IMG/VR virus record: IMGVR_UViG_3300038555_000011
Coordinates: 1-42,948 of that record
Reading direction: 5' to 3' (one strand)
DNA length: 42,948 nt
From: a virus
How positions within the stretch are numbered: position 1 is the first letter of the stretch; each line of letters begins with the position of its first letter. The notes beneath the pieces were generated by a model. That model made no database searches. It worked only from the letters and a program-made list of their open reading frames with translations, and was not told the DNA's origin. Of this stretch, positions 34,883-42,948 are shown piece by piece. Position numbers and translations under genes: made by a program.

Positions 34883-35284
34883 TCAGTTGTCCCGGTAGGG
34901 CAGGCGCACGGCGAACTCGCCCACCCGATCCGGCTTGGATGACAGGTCGACCCCCACGGTCATCGTGGCGCGCTCGATGACCTGGTCGGCGAGGCCCGCG
35001 GCCTGCATCAGAACATCGCGGGTTGCGGCCCTCAGAGCCGGGTCGGATTGGCGACCCCAGGCATAGACGAGGTGGGCGAACGACAGTGCCAGCAGGCCGT
35101 CAGGATACCGGGCAGGGGGATTCCAGACACTGCGCGCCGAACAGCCGGCCGCTGCGACGACCGCGCGCTGTTTCGGGTCATCGGACGCCACCGCGGCATG
35201 GGTGTCATGGATCAACCGAACCCAACGCGCGCGGTCGCGGGCATAGTCGATCGGCGGTCGGACCGGGGTGCGCTTCAGGCTCAT
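34883..35284 (-). CDS. Hypothetical protein in regulator operon
   Basis: A 133-residue helical protein (RWVRLIHDTHAAVASDDPKQRAVVAAAGCS...SFAHLVYAWGRQSDPALRAATRDVLMQAAGLADQVIER). No recognised domain. Coupled to the preceding regulator gene (ATGA), so expressed with it in the leftward early operon. Confidence 0.55.
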   Translation of the reverse strand: MSLKRTPVRPPIDYARDRARWVRLIHDTHAAVASDDPKQRAVVAAAGCSARSVWNPPARYPDGLLALSFAHLVYAWGRQSDPALRAATRDVLMQAAGLADQVIERATMTVGVDLSSKPDRVGEFAVRLPYRDN

Positions 35285-35721
35285 GCCCCCACCTTGCCGG
35301 GCTTCAGCCGCGCCGCGGCGTCAGCCGCTTCCTGGGCCTCGCGGAGCATGCGTTGCGTGCGCGCCTGGACGTCACGGATCTCGGCTTCCGATCGCGAGCC
35401 ATCGGCGTCCATGGCGTGGACCGACGTTAGCGCCTCGGCCGAGGCAGAAACCGCGTCCACCATCGCGTCTTTCAAACTGTCGTCGGCCTCGCCTTCAATC
35501 GCCCGGGACGCGGCGCCGGTGATCACCGCGCGGCCGACCACGGACTCGAGGGTCAGGATCTGGCGCAGGTTCGGCATGTCCAACGCGCCGGCTGATTGCA
35601 GAAGGCTGATCCGCTGATGTTTGCATCCCAGCTCGACGGCCGCTGCCTCGACACCCCCAGCCGCCCTCACCAGCTGCCGGAACAGGGCCTTGATCTCGCC
35701 GTCCGTCAGGGCGCGGCTCAT
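35281..35721 (-). CDS. Putative phage regulator (CII-like position)
   Basis: A 146-residue protein. The N-terminal half (ALTDGEIKALFRQLVRAAGGVEAAAVELGCKHQRISLLQSAGALDMPNLRQILTLESVVG) reads as a helix-turn-helix of the kind seen in phage regulatory CII-type proteins. The C-terminal half is a long helix rich in A, E and R. It is placed two genes downstream of the Cro-like gene. Role inferred from domain and place only. Confidence 0.55.
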   Translation of the reverse strand: MSRALTDGEIKALFRQLVRAAGGVEAAAVELGCKHQRISLLQSAGALDMPNLRQILTLESVVGRAVITGAASRAIEGEADDSLKDAMVDAVSASAEALTSVHAMDADGSRSEAEIRDVQARTQRMLREAQEAADAAARLKPGKVGA

Positions 35722-35903
35722 TGCAAATCTCCGGATTTTGCACCGGCGCCAGCAGCCTTCAACGGCGCCACAGATGCGGCATGACCAGCAACGTCATCGA
35801 CCTCTGGACCCGCCGGCCCATCCAGCCGGACAGCCTCTTCTGGCCCGAGGCGAACCGCGTTCGCGTCGGTGATGGCGTCGGCCAGCTCGCGGAGAGCGCT
35901 CAT
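35718..35903 (-). CDS. Small hypothetical protein after Cro-like gene
   Basis: A 61-residue protein (SALRELADAITDANAVRLGPEEAVRLDGPAG...). Overlaps both neighbours by four bases (ATGA), so its expression is tied to the operon. Function unknown. It contains the one-mismatch relative of the dispersed palindrome. Confidence 0.5.
   Translation of the reverse strand: MSALRELADAITDANAVRLGPEEAVRLDGPAGPEVDDVAGHAASVAPLKAAGAGAKSGDLQ
35850..35864. repeat. Near-copy of the dispersed palindrome (14/15)
   Basis: GCGAACCGCGTTCGC differs from GCGAACCGGGTTCGC by one base, which breaks the inner palindrome. It lies in the early regulator operon; minus-strand reading A-N-A-V-R. Confidence 0.5.
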
Positions 35904-36172
35904 TGGGCGACCTCGGGCTCTGCGCCTGAGACAATGGAGTCCGGCGAGGGCGCGGAAGGCGCAGGGTCGTGACGCAACTTCGGACAGACGCTTGCCGCGG
36001 CGACCTGGCCGTCACTCCATCGCTCAATGCGAATAGCGAGCAGAGGAGAGGCATCCCGCTTTCCGGTTTCGATGTCAGACAGCCAGCCGGCAGACTTCTC
36101 GGAAAGCCCGAGTTCGCCGCAGGTTTGCTGAAGGGTCAGGCCGCGCTCGCGGCGAAAATCGGCGAAGAGCAT
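35900..36172 (-). CDS. Cro-like XRE regulator
   Basis: A 90-residue protein with an XRE helix-turn-helix: MLFADFRRERGLTLQQTCGELGLSEKSAGWLSDIETGKRDASPLLAIRIERWSDG, with the family 'DIETGKR' turn. Transcribed away from the repressor and followed by the leftward early operon, which is the position of Cro. The promoter holds a -35-like TTGACG (minus; plus 36201-36206) and operator O1. The mRNA leader appears very short, perhaps leaderless. Confidence 0.75.
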   Translation of the reverse strand: MLFADFRRERGLTLQQTCGELGLSEKSAGWLSDIETGKRDASPLLAIRIERWSDGQVAAASVCPKLRHDPAPSAPSPDSIVSGAEPEVAQ

Positions 36173-36206
36173 GCCGTTGTTTCACCTGACGTGAAACTTC
36201 CGTCAA
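36173..36206 (-). promoter_or_regulatory. Leftward early promoter (Cro side)
   Basis: On the minus strand TTGACG (plus 36206-36201) is followed 17-18 bp later by an A-rich hexamer near GAAACA. Operator O1 fills the spacer and -10. The start codon lies only about 7 bases beyond, so a leaderless transcript is possible, as is common in Caulobacterales. Confidence 0.5.
36179..36197. promoter_or_regulatory. Operator O1, GTTTCAC-CTGAC-GTGAAAC
   Basis: Perfect 7-bp arms and 5-bp spacer. It overlaps the leftward promoter. Centre 36188. Confidence 0.75.
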
Positions 36207-36213
36207 GCGCCAT

Positions 36214-36232
36214 TTTTCACGATGCGGGTAAC
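36214..36232. promoter_or_regulatory. Operator O2, TTTTCAC-GATGC-GGGTAAC
   Basis: Same geometry; left arm 6/7 and right arm 5/7 to the O1 arms. Centre 36223, 35 bp from O1 and 34 bp from O3. Weak by sequence, supported by spacing. Confidence 0.5.
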
Positions 36233-36247
36233 TACTTCTCTTGCGGA

Positions 36248-36266
36248 GTTTCACATCCTACGAAAA
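36248..36266. promoter_or_regulatory. Operator O3, GTTTCAC-ATCCT-ACGAAAA
   Basis: Left arm perfect, right arm 4/7. It ends on the A of the repressor start codon, so binding would block repressor expression (autoregulation). Centre 36257. Confidence 0.55.
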
Positions 36267-36580
36267 TGGCTGTCCCAGCAAAGCATGACTGGTATCTGCA
36301 GGAATGGTTCGCCACCGTTGGGCTGAGGCAGTTCGACCTGGTCACAAAGCTCGATTACCCGCGCGGAACGGCTCACAAGCTGTGGCACGGCCTCCAGCCG
36401 TACCGTCGCGACAACGTCGAGGAGATCTCAGCCCTGCTGAACATCGCACCACACGAACTCCTGATGCACCCCGATGATGCGATGGCCATCCGCAGGTTGA
36501 CGGCTGCCGTCACCGAGATCGCCCGTCAGCCTGCATCGGCGGAGGTTGATCAGGCCCAGCCCAAGCGTGTGGCCGGCTGA
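36266..36580 (+). CDS. XRE-type phage repressor (CI-like, short)
   Basis: A 104-residue protein with a helix-turn-helix (WYLQEWFATVGLRQFDLVTKLDYPRGTAHKLWHGLQPYRRDNVEEISALLNIAPHELLM, residues 8-65) and a short C-terminal tail. Unlike lambda CI it has no S24/LexA-like peptidase domain, so induction by RecA-driven self-cleavage is not expected. It is divergent from the Cro-like gene with three operators between, and is followed after one base by the lipoprotein gene, so the two form a lysogeny operon. The start at ATG 36266 overlaps operator O3. It could bind the GTTTCAC-N5-GTGAAAC operators here and at 37.4 kb. Confidence 0.75.
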   Translation: MAVPAKHDWYLQEWFATVGLRQFDLVTKLDYPRGTAHKLWHGLQPYRRDNVEEISALLNIAPHELLMHPDDAMAIRRLTAAVTEIARQPASAEVDQAQPKRVAG

Positions 36581-36581
36581 C

Positions 36582-37046
36582 ATGCGGGCAACCCGGCCCT
36601 GGATGACGGTGACAATTGTAGGACTGCTTGTCTCCGCATGCTCGCAACCTGCGACGGGCCCAATCGAGACCGACGGCACGGGCTCTCTATGGTCGGATGC
36701 AGCCAAGGCGGCGGAGCGGCGATGGTCCCCGGACGCGGACCTCACGATCGAAATGCAGATCAACCTAGTCGACCCCTATGGCAACGGGACATCCGAGCCT
36801 GCGCTGGACTTCCTGTGGAGCCGTCAGGAGCTGGCGCGCATCAACCCGGATGCCGCCGATGGATGGCGGCTCCTGAATCTTGCCGACGTGACCATTCGAA
36901 GCCAGCGCGGGGTCATCGCACTGGCGGAGTGGTGCGAAGATCGGGGCCGTACGCTTACGCCTCGACTGTGCCGGGACCCTCGCTCAGCCGCCGAGGACCG
37001 GTGGGCTCTCCGCTTCGAGAACCGCGACGCTAAACCCGAAAGCTGA
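36582..37046 (+). CDS. Lysogeny-operon lipoprotein
   Basis: A 154-residue lipoprotein. Signal peptide RATRPWMTVTIVGLLVSAC ends in a lipobox (VSAC), with Ser at +2, compatible with outer-membrane sorting. The mature part is acidic, with two paired Cys in the C-terminal half (WCEDRGRTLTPRLC). No family recognised. It starts one base after the repressor stop, so it should be made in the lysogen. Lipoproteins in this position often block receptors or DNA entry for related phages (superinfection exclusion) or alter the host surface. This is inference from position and export signals. Confidence 0.7.
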   Translation: MRATRPWMTVTIVGLLVSACSQPATGPIETDGTGSLWSDAAKAAERRWSPDADLTIEMQINLVDPYGNGTSEPALDFLWSRQELARINPDAADGWRLLNLADVTIRSQRGVIALAEWCEDRGRTLTPRLCRDPRSAAEDRWALRFENRDAKPES

Positions 37047-37280
37047 TCAGGCCGCGTCATCCTCTGGGACCTCCCCGACGATCGAGAGCAGCTCAATCTC
37101 CGTCCACTGGTCGCCAGAAGCTGACGCATCGACTTTGAAGAAGGCAACGCCCGCCACGCGGTGCGCCATGGCCCTGCCACGCCTCGCTGCCTCATCCTCC
37201 GTCTCGCAGGCCAGCGGTGTGTCGGCCTCCAATCTCCCGCTCCTGCGCCTGAAAGGCTGAACGACATACAGATCCGACAT
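37047..37280 (-). CDS. Small hypothetical protein convergent to lipoprotein gene
   Basis: A 77-residue protein (MSDLYVVQPFRRRSGRLEADTPLACETEDEAARRGRAMAHRVAG...AFFKVDASASGDQWTEIELLSIVGEVPEDDAA). The form, a strand, a helix beginning ETEDEAARRG, then strands, is common in small phage proteins of this group. Its stop abuts the lipoprotein stop in a shared TGATCA. Its promoter would lie in the 37281-37546 control region. Function unknown. Confidence 0.6.
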   Translation of the reverse strand: MSDLYVVQPFRRRSGRLEADTPLACETEDEAARRGRAMAHRVAGVAFFKVDASASGDQWTEIELLSIVGEVPEDDAA

Positions 37281-37365
37281 ACGCGCCCCCGGCAAAAACT
37301 TAACGGTCCACTGATTCCCGTGGAGTGAACCAGAGTCGAGGGTGGATACGACAGAAACGGACGTA

Positions 37366-37384
37366 GGTTCACGTCAGGTGAAAA
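37366..37384. promoter_or_regulatory. Operator O4, GGTTCAC-GTCAG-GTGAAAA
   Basis: Inverted relative of O1: the reverse complement TTTTCAC-CTGAC-GTGAACC shares the CTGAC spacer and 17 of 19 bases with O1. Centre 37375, just upstream of the rightward -35. Confidence 0.7.
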
Positions 37385-37390
37385 ACTAGC

Positions 37391-37419
37391 TTGACGACGG
37401 AGTTTCACTTGTGATGAAA
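37391..37419 (+). promoter_or_regulatory. Rightward early promoter (ParB side)
   Basis: TTGACG (37391-37396), 17-bp spacer, ATGAAA (37414-37419). The layout (TTGACG, then AGTTTCAC of an operator in the spacer) mirrors the leftward promoter at 36173-36206. The -10 is poor, so an activator or another exact -10 is possible. Confidence 0.5.
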
Positions 37420-37429
37420 CTCCGTCGTC
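37393..37429. repeat. Perfect 15-bp inverted repeat around O5
   Basis: GACGACGGAGTTTCA (37393-37407), 7-base loop, TGAAACTCCGTCGTC (37415-37429). If transcribed it would form a very stable hairpin at the mRNA 5' end; as DNA it extends the operator symmetry. Confidence 0.85.
37402..37420. promoter_or_regulatory. Operator O5, GTTTCAC-TTGTG-ATGAAAC
   Basis: Arms 7/7 and 6/7 with the same 5-bp spacer; centre 37411, 36 bp from O4. It is inside the larger 15-bp-arm inverted repeat. Confidence 0.7.
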
Positions 37430-37546: not shown

Positions 37547-38083
37547 ATGACTGCCTCGCCCATCGCCACCGCCCAGATCCTGCCCTTCCCGCGGCGGGTC
37601 CAGCCGCACAGTCTCGACCTCTCACGTGCCACGCCGGCCGACCAGGCCGCGCTCGAAGCGGTCCGCCGCAACACCGTCGCCGTGATCGCCGCCCATCGGC
37701 AGGCAGATCGCGCCGAACTGGTCTCGGCCCTGCTGATGGCCATGGAGTCCCTGCCTCTCGACCGGCCGCTCTGCTACCCCAGCCGCGACATAACAGGGCG
37801 CGCCTTCGTGGTCGTGACCGTGGGCGGCACCGTGTTCCGGCTTCAGCCCGACGACTGCCGCACGGCCGCCGACGCTCTGATCGCCGACCCGTCGGTCACC
37901 GGCTGCATCGGTGACGCCGCCCGCCTTCGCGAAGCGGCCGCGCTCGCCGAGGTTCGGCCCGCCCATGGCGGCCCGCTGTCGCCGCCGGCATCGCATCCGG
38001 GCCGGACCGGCATGGTCACGACCGTGACCCTGGTCGTGCTGATCGTCACCTGCCTGATCCTGGCCCGGGGCCTGTCCCTCTGA
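37547..38083 (+). CDS. Tail-anchored hypothetical protein, first gene of ParB operon
   Basis: A 178-residue protein with a soluble helical/beta part (ATPADQAALEAVRRNTVAVIAAHRQADRAELVSALLMAMES..., FVVVTVGGTVFRLQPDDCRTAADALI) and one C-terminal transmembrane helix (about 155-175, VTTVTLVVLIVTCLILARGLS). Function unknown. First gene after the operator-controlled promoter, so it should be expressed early after infection or induction. Coupled to the next gene (TGATG). Confidence 0.6.
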   Translation: MTASPIATAQILPFPRRVQPHSLDLSRATPADQAALEAVRRNTVAVIAAHRQADRAELVSALLMAMESLPLDRPLCYPSRDITGRAFVVVTVGGTVFRLQPDDCRTAADALIADPSVTGCIGDAARLREAAALAEVRPAHGGPLSPPASHPGRTGMVTTVTLVVLIVTCLILARGLSL

Positions 38084-38277
38084 TGCGCGTCCAGATCGCC
38101 GTCGTCGCGCCGACGCCCGGCACGGAAACCCTCTCGGTTCGGCTCATCGAACGCATGCTCCGCCACCTCGACTATGACGTGTCGGTGGCAGGGTCGCAGC
38201 CGGACCCGTCGTCTGCCGAGATGGCCGACATGGTCGCCGAGGCGCGCTCTACCGGCCTTGCCTTCCAGATCGTCTGA
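38083..38277 (+). CDS. Small hypothetical protein in ParB operon
   Basis: A 64-residue protein (MRVQIAVVAPTPGTETLSVRLIERMLRHLDYDVSVAG...), beta-helix-beta in appearance. Both ends overlap its neighbours (TGATG). Unknown function. Confidence 0.55.
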   Translation: MRVQIAVVAPTPGTETLSVRLIERMLRHLDYDVSVAGSQPDPSSAEMADMVAEARSTGLAFQIV

Positions 38278-38570
38278 TGACGGCCGCCCGCGAACCCGGT
38301 TCGCCGCTCTTGCTGATCGCTGACACGGCCGCCCCCGAACAATTCGACGGCGCGGAGGCGCTCGCCCGCCGGGTTCACCAGCTGCGCCAGGGCGGCGGAC
38401 TGGACTTCACCGTTGGCCACGCCTCGACCGGCGGCCCGGCCTTTCCCGGCGTCCTGATCTGGCGCTCGGCGCCCCGGACCTATCTCGCCTTCGCGGCCGG
38501 GCGCGGCGCCGACACTCCGACGGCCCTCGTGGCCGCCCTTTCCCGCACCCGCGCCGCCGTCGCGGCCTGA
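38277..38570 (+). CDS. Small hypothetical protein before ParB
   Basis: A 97-residue alpha/beta protein (PLLLIADTAAPEQFDGAEALARRVHQLRQGGGLDFTVGHAS...). Unknown function. It carries copy 9 of the dispersed palindrome in its first 10 codons, where it reads R-E-P-G-S-P, about 290 bp upstream of the ParB start. Confidence 0.55.
   Translation: MTAAREPGSPLLLIADTAAPEQFDGAEALARRVHQLRQGGGLDFTVGHASTGGPAFPGVLIWRSAPRTYLAFAAGRGADTPTALVAALSRTRAAVAA
38291..38303. repeat. Dispersed palindrome CGAACC-S-GGTTCG, copy 9
   Basis: Full 15-bp form GCGAACCCGGTTCGC at 38290-38304; plus-strand reading E-P-G-S. It is the copy closest to the ParB-like gene. Confidence 0.85.
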
Positions 38571-38583
38571 CGAAAGACCCGAG

Positions 38584-40236
38584 ATGGACAAGCTGCTCGC
38601 CTTCAAGAACCTCGACACCTTCCGTGCCATTCAGGCGCAAGGGCCTGCGGCCACCAACGCCAGCCTAGCCGAGGCCCTGGCCCGCGACCCCTCCAATATG
38701 AACAAGACACTTGGCCTGCTGGTCGCGGACGGCCTGATCACCCGCGACCCGTTCGCCCTGACCGAAAAGGCCGAGGCTGTCCTGCGCGCTGACGATGTCG
38801 CCGAGGGCCGAGCGTCGCTGACCCGCGACACGTCCGACCCGGCCAACCTCTCCCTCCGCCATGCCGACATCCTGCCCGATCCGGATAACGCACGCCGCGA
38901 CTGGACCAGCGACGACGCCGTCGCCGACCTTCAGGCTCTCGCGAACGACATCCGCGACAACGGCTTGCTGCAGAACCTGATTGTTCGCCCGCACGCGGAT
39001 CCCCTGATTGACGAATGGATCCTCGTCGGCGGCGAACGCCGCTGGCGCGCCCTCGGTCTGTTGATCGAACGCGGCGAATGGCTGGCCGAGCAGACCGTCC
39101 CCGCCCGCCGCCTCCATGCTGATGACGTCGGCATCCGCCTCGCCGCCCTGGCCGAGAACCTCCAGCGCCGCGCCCTAAACCCGATCGAGGAGGCGAACGC
39201 CTATCGCGGGCTGGAAGCCGTGGGCCTGACGACGAAGGAGATCGCCGCCCGCATCTCCATGACCCAGCGCCACGTCCAGATGCGGCTTCAGCTGCTGGAC
39301 CTGCTGAACGAGGACCAGCAGCGTCGCATGACCCTGCCCAGTGACGACAAGGATCGCCTGTCGGTGTCCGAGGCCCGCAAACTGGTCGCCAACGCCGAGG
39401 CCAAGGCCCGTGCCCGCGAACAGATCGAGAGCGAGCTTTCGCCTCGCGCGCGGCTGATCCTGGCCGAGGTCAAGCTGGCGGGTCCGGGCTGGTGGGATCG
39501 TGTCCCGGTCGACGCCATCGCCATGAACGCCGACGCCGACGCGGTCGCCCTGAACCAGGCGGGCTATCTCAAACTGCCGACCACGGTCGATCTGGACGGC
39601 AACGCCAACACCGTGATCGAGAGCGGCGGCTTCGAAGCGGTCACGACCCTGTTCAATCACGAGGTCGCCGCCCGCGCCGCCGCCCTGCGCGCGGAACTGG
39701 GCCTGCCCGCCCCGGAAGATGGGCGATACTCCACCGCCTGGCTCAATGGCCCGTTCGAACTCCCGGCCGAGGTCGAGGCCGATCTCGCCGCCCGCCGCGC
39801 CGAGCGCGAACGACAGGAGGAGGAACAGCAGGCCCGGATCGACGCCAACATCGCGGCCCGGGAGGCCGCTGCCAACCGGGCCGCCCTGTCCCGCGTGCAC
39901 GCCGAGGCCATGCTGTTCAAGGCTGCCGTGCCGCCCGCCGCTCCGATCATCGACGACGTGCCCCAGCTGGCCGCCAGCCTCGACCGCCGCCTGCCATGGG
40001 CCGCGACCGACAAGGGCACCGTTCATGACGCCGACGGCAAACAGATCACCAGCTTCTGCGGCCAGTGGCAGTCGGCGGGCGACCGCGAGATCGCCCTGGC
40101 CATCCTGACCGCCACCGCCGTCAACACCGCTGCCGGCGTCGAGACCCCGCCGCTGATCGTCGCCGAGCCGGAACAGGCCGCGGATGGCTCGGACGCCGAC
40201 GCTGAAGACGACGACGAGCCCGAGGCCGACGACTGA
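38584..40236 (+). CDS. Orphan ParB/KorB-like protein with N-terminal winged helix
   Basis: A 550-residue ParB-family protein. Domains in order: winged-helix-like DNA-binding segment (about 10-70, LDTFRAIQAQGPAATNASLAEALARDPSNMNKTLGLLVADGLI); ParB N-domain (about 90-195) with ILPDPDNARRDW and the CTP-binding box GGERRWRA (149-156); the ENLQRRALNPIEEA motif; central KorB/ParB helix-turn-helix (208-237, GLTTKEIAARISMTQRHVQMRL); then a long helical Glu/Arg region (about 390-430) and an acidic tail. Known ParB proteins clamp on DNA at palindromes and either segregate it with ParA or, like KorB, also repress transcription. No ParA is found. Its likely targets are the nine dispersed 13-bp palindromes. 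Coupled to the next gene (TGATG). Confidence 0.85.
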   Translation: MDKLLAFKNLDTFRAIQAQGPAATNASLAEALARDPSNMNKTLGLLVADGLITRDPFALTEKAEAVLRADDVAEGRASLTRDTSDPANLSLRHADILPDPDNARRDWTSDDAVADLQALANDIRDNGLLQNLIVRPHADPLIDEWILVGGERRWRALGLLIERGEWLAEQTVPARRLHADDVGIRLAALAENLQRRALNPIEEANAYRGLEAVGLTTKEIAARISMTQRHVQMRLQLLDLLNEDQQRRMTLPSDDKDRLSVSEARKLVANAEAKARAREQIESELSPRARLILAEVKLAGPGWWDRVPVDAIAMNADADAVALNQAGYLKLPTTVDLDGNANTVIESGGFEAVTTLFNHEVAARAAALRAELGLPAPEDGRYSTAWLNGPFELPAEVEADLAARRAERERQEEEQQARIDANIAAREAAANRAALSRVHAEAMLFKAAVPPAAPIIDDVPQLAASLDRRLPWAATDKGTVHDADGKQITSFCGQWQSAGDREIALAILTATAVNTAAGVETPPLIVAEPEQAADGSDADAEDDDEPEADD

Positions 40237-41578: not shown

Positions 41579-41923
41579 ATGATCGCGGTATCCATCGGCC
41601 CCGTCACCGAGGCACGCATCCTCGCCGCCTTCGCGGACAGGGCGGTACTGACCATCAAGGACGCGGCCCAGCTGCTGGGCATGGACCCAAAAACGCTGGA
41701 CGCCATCACCGAAGTTGGGGCCATCAGGGCCGTGCGTCGCGGTGGCGGCGAGACGCGCGGCTATACCGAAGGTGACATCCGCGCCTACCTGACAGAGAGT
41801 GCCGCCCCATGTCGGTCTACAAACCCAAAGCCAGCCCCTATTTCCACTACGACTTCCAGATCCGTGGTGCTCGATTTCACGGCTCGACGGGCGTTGAAAC
41901 GAAGCGCGCAGCTGAAGAGATAG
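41579..41923 (+). CDS. Excisionase-like HTH protein
   Basis: A 114-residue protein with a MerR/HTH_17-like winged helix (LTIKDAAQLLGMDPKTLDAITEVGAIRAVRRGGGETRGYTEGDIRAYL, about residues 23-72), the usual fold of recombination directionality factors placed next to integrases. The last 38 codons overlap the integrase gene in another frame (41809-41923), an unusually long overlap. It should bend att DNA and favour excision; it could alternatively regulate the integrase. Confidence 0.7.
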   Translation: MIAVSIGPVTEARILAAFADRAVLTIKDAAQLLGMDPKTLDAITEVGAIRAVRRGGGETRGYTEGDIRAYLTESAAPCRSTNPKPAPISTTTSRSVVLDFTARRALKRSAQLKR

Positions 41924-42948
41924 AACGCCGAATTCGTCGCCAAGCCGCCTCGGGCGAGCTGGACGATGCCAGCCGCATGACCCTGGACCAGGCCGCTGCG
42001 CGCTGGATGGATGAAGTCGGGGCCACCCTGAAGGGCGGCGACCGACTTGAATCCCGCATCGAGCGCGCCATCACCCTGATCGGCCCCCAACGCCCGATCT
42101 GCGAGATCACCACCCCCGTCATGTCCCGCGCGATCGAGAAGCGGCGGGGCCAGACCCGGAAGCATTCCAAAGCCAAGGGGGCGAAGGAATACCTGCCCAG
42201 CGCATCGACAGTGAACCGCGACATGATCGACGCGGTCCGGCCGATCCTGAACCGCGCCCGCAAGGTCTGGGGTGCCACCCTGCCCGAGATCGACTGGTCC
42301 CAGCTGCGCATGGTCGAACCAAAGGCCAAGCCCAAGGAATTCGCCGGCGACGACTTGGACCAGCTGCTCGCCGAGATCCGACCGCACTGGCACGACATGG
42401 TCCGGTTCGCGACGGTCTATGGCGTGCGTCTCGGCGAGCTTTTCTTCAGCCTGGACGACGTGGACGTCCACCGCCTCGATGAGGCGCGGATCAAGCTACG
42501 CGACCGTAAAGGCGACGACGATCACACCATTCCACTGCTGCCAGAGGACGCGGCGGCCATGGCAGCGCGTCTTGGCCGCGCGCGAGCCGGCGGGCTGAAG
42601 ACTGTTTGGTTCCGGGAGAATCGGCTGCCAGGTCCAGGCGGGAGGGTGATCCTCAAACCCCTGACCTATGCCGGCCTCGCCATCGCCGTTCGTCGCGCCA
42701 TGACGCGCTCCGGCCTTCGCGCGTCCAAGGGGATGCGCGGCATCCACGCGGCTCGCCACCACGCAGGGATGCAGATGCTGCGGGCCACCGGCAACCTGCG
42801 CCTGGCGCAGCGCCTTCTGGGCCATGCCGACATCAAATCGACCATGGTCTACGCCCACGCGATCGAGACCGACGTCCGTGCTGGCCTCGCGGCTTTGCGC
42901 CAGCCGTCACCAACAAAATCTGATGGGAAGCGCGCGAATGAAGCTTGA
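41809..42948 (+). CDS. int: Tyrosine integrase
   Basis: A 379-residue tyrosine recombinase. N-terminal arm-binding part (YKPKASPYFHYDFQIRGARFHGSTG), a core-binding helical domain (about 55-165), and the catalytic domain with R207 (YGVRLGEL), a likely Lys in the RDRKGDDD beta turn (about 234), H313-x-x-R316 (GIHAARHH), H339 (LLGHADIKS) and the nucleophile Y348 (MVYAH). All six active-site positions are in order. It integrates and excises the phage at att sites not contained here. The window ends on its TGA. Confidence 0.94.
   Translation: MSVYKPKASPYFHYDFQIRGARFHGSTGVETKRAAEEIERRIRRQAASGELDDASRMTLDQAAARWMDEVGATLKGGDRLESRIERAITLIGPQRPICEITTPVMSRAIEKRRGQTRKHSKAKGAKEYLPSASTVNRDMIDAVRPILNRARKVWGATLPEIDWSQLRMVEPKAKPKEFAGDDLDQLLAEIRPHWHDMVRFATVYGVRLGELFFSLDDVDVHRLDEARIKLRDRKGDDDHTIPLLPEDAAAMAARLGRARAGGLKTVWFRENRLPGPGGRVILKPLTYAGLAIAVRRAMTRSGLRASKGMRGIHAARHHAGMQMLRATGNLRLAQRLLGHADIKSTMVYAHAIETDVRAGLAALRQPSPTKSDGKRANEA

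What the first reader, a model, noticed from the sequence alone, without database searches (positions are those of the whole stretch)
36179..37420. Five operators of one type link the repressor switch and the ParB operon
GTTTCAC-N5-GTGAAAC occurs as O1, O2, O3 (centres 36188, 36223, 36257) between repressor and Cro-like gene and as O4, O5 (37375, 37411) before the rightward operon. Centre spacing is 35, 34 and 36 bp, so bound dimers would face the same or nearly the same side of DNA. Both early promoters share the layout TTGACG followed by AGTTTCAC. This parallels the OL/OR pair of lambda, with a loop of about 1.2 kb that encloses the repressor and lipoprotein genes.
Basis: partly seen in the sequence, partly recalled or inferred. 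Interest (0 to 1): 0.72.

Follow-up and report, generated by a model that had tools for sequence, protein, structure and literature searches.

The report
Miniature lambda-type prophage switch
The five repeated DNA sites are almost certainly the binding sites of a very small phage repressor that keeps two sets of viral genes off, in the same layout as the textbook lambda switch; the layout is conserved in more than 40 related phages and prophages although the repressor lacks the large second half that lambda's repressor needs.

Summary
All five sites are at the stated places (one exact, four with 1-3 mismatches; not chance). The 104-aa HTH protein has relatives in phages, prophages and viral contigs. 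Across 41 loci, unaligned palindromicity before cI peaks at -78, -42 and -9 from the ATG (O1, O2, O3). Each genome's own O1 finds a second operator pair before the rightward operon in 36 of 39 genomes; centre spacing is 34-36 bp, or 45 bp in two. Five held-out loci agree. Operator half-sites differ between genomes and co-vary with the CI recognition helix only (partial r 0.51, 0/500 permutations). This is a lambda-type immunity region: cro-OR-cI-cargo-OL-early operon-int. It differs from lambda in a ~104-aa CI without a C-terminal domain, ~34.5-bp spacing (lambda plus one turn), two OL sites, and apparently leaderless cI and cro. Corrections: the core operator is 17 bp; O2 and O3 are weak and O3 is missing in one clade; 34-36 bp is 3.24-3.43 turns, so the dimers do not share a face, though phase is conserved; looping is untested, and OR-OL distance runs from 418 to 4085 bp without phasing. 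No description of this family was found in the papers searched.

The parts
36179..36197 (.). O1 (OR1-like), 17-bp core 36180-36196, centre -78 from cI ATG; lies in the -35/-10 spacer and -10 of the leftward promoter
   Evidence: exact motif; palindromicity peak at -78 over 41 loci, z 6.7
36214..36232 (.). O2 (OR2-like), core 36215-36231, centre -43; good left half-site, degenerate right half abutting the PRM -35
   Evidence: 3 mismatches; conserved at -42/-43 in relatives
36248..36266 (.). O3 (OR3-like), core 36249-36265, centre -9; covers the PRM -10 and ends at the base before the cI ATG
   Evidence: 3 mismatches; palindromicity peak at -9; absent in the GTTTAG clade
37366..37384 (.). O4 (OL2-like), core 37367-37383, GTTCAC half-site
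   Evidence: 2 mismatches; OL pair found with own O1 motif in 36/39 genomes
37402..37420 (.). O5 (OL1-like), core 37403-37419, over the -35/-10 spacer of the rightward promoter
   Evidence: 1 mismatch; conserved OL1
36201..36206 (-). -35 (TTGACG) of the leftward (PR-like) promoter, between O1 and O2
   Evidence: sequence; TTGNNN usually 9-11 bp before O1 in relatives
37391..37396 (+). -35 (TTGACG) of the rightward (PL-like) promoter, between O4 and O5
   Evidence: sequence; TTGNNN usually 9-11 bp before OL1 in relatives
36231..36259 (+). inferred PRM-like promoter of cI: -35 region 36231-36236 (ACTACT; ACGACN in relatives), -10 36254-36259 (CATCCT; TATAAT-like in relatives), start at the A of the ATG (leaderless)
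   Evidence: column conservation over 42 loci
36266..36580 (+). cI-like repressor, 104 aa, HTH only, six predicted helices, C-terminal tail disordered
   Evidence: HTH_26 below cut-off, 27 of 39 relatives match HTH_26, AlphaFold2 pLDDT 84.6, recognition helix covaries with operator
35900..36172 (-). cro-like XRE gene, 90 aa, first gene of the leftward lytic operon; no Shine-Dalgarno seen
   Evidence: HTH_31 E 2e-5, below cut-off; conserved position in relatives
35281..35721 (-). possible CII-like regulator in the leftward operon
   Evidence: phrog_101 E 0.006, weak
36582..37046 (+). putative lipoprotein (VSAC lipobox) in the rex position, TGA-C-ATG after cI
   Evidence: phrog_25219 of unknown function, E 1e-6
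37047..37280 (-). 77-aa ORF of opposite strand between cargo and OL; function unknown
37547..40236 (+). rightward early operon (three small ORFs, then ParB-like protein 38584-40236)
   Evidence: ParB_N and HTH_ParB above cut-off, phrog_4715 E 8e-25
41809..42948 (+). tyrosine integrase at the right end of the record
   Evidence: Phage_integrase E 2e-13

Best explanation
This is the immunity region of a temperate phage, built like lambda's with minimal parts. The 104-aa HTH protein (CI) binds, as a dimer, 17-bp operators. O1 and O5 lie across the two early promoters, so bound CI shuts off the leftward lytic operon (cro, CII-like, primases, then terminase and structural genes) and the rightward operon (ParB-like to integrase). 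O2, centred at -43 of cI, abuts the poor -35 of the cI promoter, so CI there probably helps RNA polymerase make its own mRNA; O3 covers the -10, so high CI (or Cro) shuts that promoter down. The mRNA probably starts at the A of the ATG (leaderless) and reads into the lipoprotein, which stays on in the lysogen as rex does. The Cro-like protein probably binds the same sites to favour lysis. Shown by sequence and comparison: the sites, their positions, their presence in both clusters, the match of site to CI recognition helix. Inferred: dimer binding, repression, activation from O2, O3 feedback, pairwise contact between neighbouring dimers. Not shown: looping between the clusters, and how a repressor without a cleavable domain is induced.
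For: Sites exceed chance. Relatives in 37 viral contigs, Sphingomonad genomes and phages Mae-JY04 and Pam1. Unaligned palindromicity peaks at -78, -42, -9. OL pair with the genome's own half-site in 36/39 at 2 or fewer mismatches of 24; shuffled regions and other-class motifs never below 4. Held-out loci 5/5. CI residues 30-41 co-vary with operators (partial r 0.51, 0/500), other CI blocks do not. PRM consensus ACGACN-N17-TATAAT-N6-ATG. Model resembles lambda repressor N-domain with operator DNA (1lmb among top hits, E 0.035, prob 0.99, TM 0.47-0.54). Gene order cro, primases, terminase leftward, int rightward.
Against: No binding or expression data. Window O2 and O3 are poor matches and its PRM -10 (CATCCT) and -35 region are weaker than in relatives. 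The -10 of the two early promoters is not clear. O3 is missing in the GTTTAG clade. HTH matches of the window proteins are below curated cut-offs. Fold hits have E > 0.001. Cro binding rests on weak covariation (partial r 0.27, 21/1000).
Confidence: 0.87

Rival explanations
1. The Cro-like 90-aa protein is the main or only binder of the five sites, and the 104-aa protein is a regulator of something else.
For: Cro is an HTH protein, its gene also abuts O1, and in 19 XRE-type loci its recognition block shows weak covariation with the operators (partial r 0.27, 21/1000).
Against: In the same 19 loci CI gives 0.52 (0/1000). Cro proteins look dissimilar between clades while site geometry stays the same. 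Sharing of the sites by both proteins remains likely.
Confidence: 0.06
2. The five sites also work as a loop: CI bound at O4/O5 contacts CI at O1-O3 across 1.2 kb, as in lambda.
For: Same two-cluster layout as lambda; the OL pair is kept in nearly all relatives; pair spacing keeps one helical phase (34-36 or 45 bp), which suggests contacts between neighbouring dimers.
Against: Simple repression of the rightward promoter explains the OL pair. O1-OL1 distance 418-4085 bp with no 10.5-bp phasing (R 0.04). CI has no C-terminal oligomerisation domain.
Confidence: 0.3
3. The sites are chance or low-complexity inverted repeats, or RNA hairpins such as terminators.
For: O5 lies in a 15-bp perfect inverted repeat. 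Four of five sites deviate from the stated motif.
Against: Shuffles, conserved positions and covariation with the CI helix. No run of T follows O5, and the promoter -35 lies inside the repeat. The longer repeat is not conserved.
Confidence: 0.01

Closest known systems
Phage lambda immunity region (OR, cI, rexAB, OL)
   Same: Gene order cro-OR-cI-cargo-OL-early operon-int (mirrored); three tandem operators at OR; OR2-like site at about -42/-43 of a leaderless cI promoter and OR3-like site on its -10; strongest sites over the early promoters. Lambda: two sets of three operators about 2.3 kb apart, adjacent dimers interact pairwise (PMC5880393); other lambda details from general knowledge.
   Different: CI about 104 aa without the C-terminal domain; neighbour spacing about 34.5 bp instead of 23-24 (one more turn); two OL sites, not three; cro probably leaderless; clusters 0.4-4.1 kb apart; no sequence relation beyond the HTH fold.
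Small 'CI repressor' genes of phages Mae-JY04 and Pam1
   Same: Homologous CI (47% and 43% identity), divergent cro-like gene, same five-site layout. The Pam1 paper notes CI, Cro and CII-like folds (PMC9382816).
   Different: Operators GTTTCAT and GTTCGCA; the Pam1 paper has no mention of operators. No paper on Mae-JY04 found.
Phage P2 C repressor (short, about 99 aa) and similar HTH-only repressors
   Same: Repressor of similar size without a cleavable domain (general knowledge).
   Different: P2 C uses a different operator arrangement; the C/Cox-type pair of Pam5 (L011) is only 29% identical and lacks the O1-O3 geometry by eye.

Membership tests
Lambda-type immunity region | Divergent cI and cro with tandem operators between them | tested here: met
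Lambda-type immunity region | Second operator cluster of the same specificity before the early operon on the cI side | tested here: met
   (two sites; no third site)
Lambda-type immunity region | Cargo gene(s) cotranscribed with cI between cI and OL (rex position) | tested here: met
   in the window a lipoprotein gene one base after the cI stop; absent in several relatives. Cotranscription itself inferred.
Lambda-type immunity region | CI-type HTH domain that recognises the operators | tested here: met
   fold and covariation; binding itself not tested
Lambda CI / S24 repressor family | C-terminal oligomerisation and self-cleavage (peptidase S24) domain | tested here: not met
   104 aa; only HTH matches; model ends with helix 69-87 and a disordered tail
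Lambda-type immunity region | CII activator with its own promoter for cI | tested here: inconclusive
   phrog_101 E 0.006 for 35281-35721; promoter not sought
Lambda-type immunity region | N antiterminator and nut sites on the OL side | not tested
   -
Lambda-type immunity region | Cooperative binding and OL-OR looping | not testable with these tools
   conserved 34-36/45-bp phase is suggestive only

The most novel reading that the evidence does not exclude
A repressor of about 100 residues with no C-terminal domain makes helically phased, cooperative dimer pairs (about 3.3 or 4.3 turns apart) and bridges OL and OR, so that a full lambda-like switch runs on an HTH domain and one extra helix, with an induction route that does not use RecA-stimulated self-cleavage.
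Probability: 0.27. Interest if true: 0.72.

Novelty: new variant of a known kind. Interest (0 to 1): 0.57.

Why it matters
It gives a natural, compact version of the best-studied genetic switch, in many independent genomes with about eight operator specificities. That makes it directly testable which lambda features are essential: five operators, phase, OR2-type activation and OL are kept, while the oligomerisation and self-cleavage domain is not. The operator-helix pairs are a ready-made data set for HTH recognition rules and for orthogonal small repressors. It also allows prediction of immunity groups and lysogen-expressed cargo genes in related prophages.

Tried and rejected
Search for relatives of the 90-aa Cro-like protein in viral contigs gave none. 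Near-identity DNA search in phage records gave none. OR-OL distance was tested for 10.5-bp phasing: none. A third OL site was sought: none. The 15-bp inverted repeat at O5 was tested as a conserved element: window only. Cargo genes were tested as known defence systems: only weak domain-level matches. Genomes of the order and class: strong homologues in 4 of 401 Sphingomonadales genomes including the query's own, and no further ones in a class-wide sample of 385; weaker hits there are other HTH proteins. A first pass with an automatically chosen O1 register misplaced O1 in L035, L041 and L045 and a 30-40 bp limit hid the 45-bp pairs of L022 and L029; corrected. Literature searches found no description of this family's operators; the library holds open-licence papers only.

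Full report
Observation. The window is a 42,948-base virus record with tail, portal and terminase genes and two primase-like genes on the minus strand and an integrase at the right end. Only O1 matches GTTTCAC-N5-GTGAAAC exactly; O5, O4, O2 and O3 have 1, 2, 3 and 3 mismatches. They are not chance.

Neighbourhood. O1-O3 lie between a leftward 90-aa XRE gene and a rightward 104-aa HTH gene. The leftward operon continues with a possible CII-like gene (weak), primases and structural genes; the 104-aa gene is followed after one base by a putative lipoprotein gene, then an opposite 77-aa ORF, then O4 and O5 and the operon with ParB-like protein and integrase. Mirrored, this is lambda's order cro-OR-cI-rex-OL-early operon-int.

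Relatives. Close relatives of the 104-aa protein are few, but an alignment found 37 viral-contig loci, two Sphingomonad genomes and phages Mae-JY04 and Pam1. Without aligning DNA, mean palindromicity over 41 loci, measured from the cI ATG, has its top three peaks at -78, -9 and -42. Column conservation gives an inferred cI promoter ACGACN-N17-TATAAT-N6-ATG, hence a leaderless message, with O2 ending at the -35 and O3 on the -10. In the window these promoter elements are weaker (ACTACT, CATCCT). O3 is not seen in the clade with GTTTAG operators.

The OL test. I took each genome's own O1, which differs between genomes (GTTTAG, GTTCGC, GTTTGC, GTTTCA, GTTCC, GTTCGG, GTTCAC and others), and sought a pair of like sites 25-45 bp apart downstream of cI. 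In 36 of 39 genomes a pair was found with at most 2 mismatches of 24; in 780 shuffled regions and 486 searches with a different class of O1 the best was never below 4. Among these pairs, spacing was 34 bp (16), 35 (17), 36 (the window) and 45 (2), and a TTG-type -35 usually lies between the two sites, most often 9-11 bp before the second. Five loci fetched afterwards all fit: O1 at -76 to -78 and a pair at 34 or 35 bp with at most one mismatch.

Who binds. Distances between operators follow distances between CI proteins only in residues 30-41, the turn and recognition helix (partial correlation 0.51, none of 500 permutations), and not in the other four blocks. On a common set of 19 loci CI gives 0.52 and Cro 0.27 (21 of 1000), so Cro probably also binds, with less support. 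The AlphaFold2 model has six helices and a disordered tail and resembles lambda repressor N-domain structures among many HTH proteins (no hit below E 0.001).

Phase. But 45 bp in L022 and L029 is one turn more than 34.5, and lambda's 23-24 bp (general knowledge) is one turn less, so the angular offset of about 0.3 turn is kept. L022 and L029 are 56% identical in CI and their relation is not resolved, so this may be one event. In these two loci the extra bases lie between the -35 and the outer site. A contact between neighbouring dimers, or with RNA polymerase, is the simplest reason; this is inference.

Loop. O1-OL1 distance runs from 418 to 4085 bp with no preferred phase. This neither supports nor excludes looping. 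Repression of the rightward promoter alone explains O4 and O5.

Cargo. The stretch between cI and OL is empty in some relatives and holds one or more genes in others, often membrane or lipoprotein genes, HIRAN, zinc-ribbon, WYL or protease-like proteins: the place of rex.

Verdict. A lambda-type immunity region by layout and inferred working; not a member of the lambda CI (S24) protein family, because the C-terminal domain is absent. New variant of a known kind. The five operators are real; the loop and the same-face claim are not established.

Noticed in passing
37393-37429: O5 sits in a 15-bp perfect inverted repeat (GACGACGGAGTTTCA / TGAAACTCCGTCGTC); 8 of 8 flanking positions pair against a mean of 2.4 over 38 loci. 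Not conserved; unexplained.
   Followed up: partly
36582-37046 and the cI-OL interval of relatives (L004, L006, L027, L028, L033, L042-L044 and others): Variable cargo slot between cI and OL, often with single-helix membrane proteins or lipoproteins, sometimes HIRAN or WYL domains; candidate lysogen-expressed exclusion or defence genes.
   Followed up: partly
L022 (+296) and L029 (+858 from cI start): OL pair spaced 45 bp instead of 34-36, one helical turn more. L029 also has a fuller site GTTCGATACGCCGGAAC 47 bp from O1 in addition to a poor O2.
   Followed up: partly
L013-L021, L024, L030 (GTTTAG clade): No O3; OL2 in most of this clade has a mixed left half GTTTCG with right half CTAAAC.
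   Followed up: no
35718-35903 and 35900-36172, minus strand: Cro gene start lacks a Shine-Dalgarno sequence and lies where transcription from the leftward promoter would begin: cro is probably leaderless too.
   Followed up: partly
37860-37941 minus: ARAGORN calls a tRNA-Cys inside ORF 37547-38083; probably a false call.
   Followed up: no
37313-37331: A further 3-mismatch match 53 bp before O4, out of register with the 34-36 bp spacing; probably chance.
   Followed up: no
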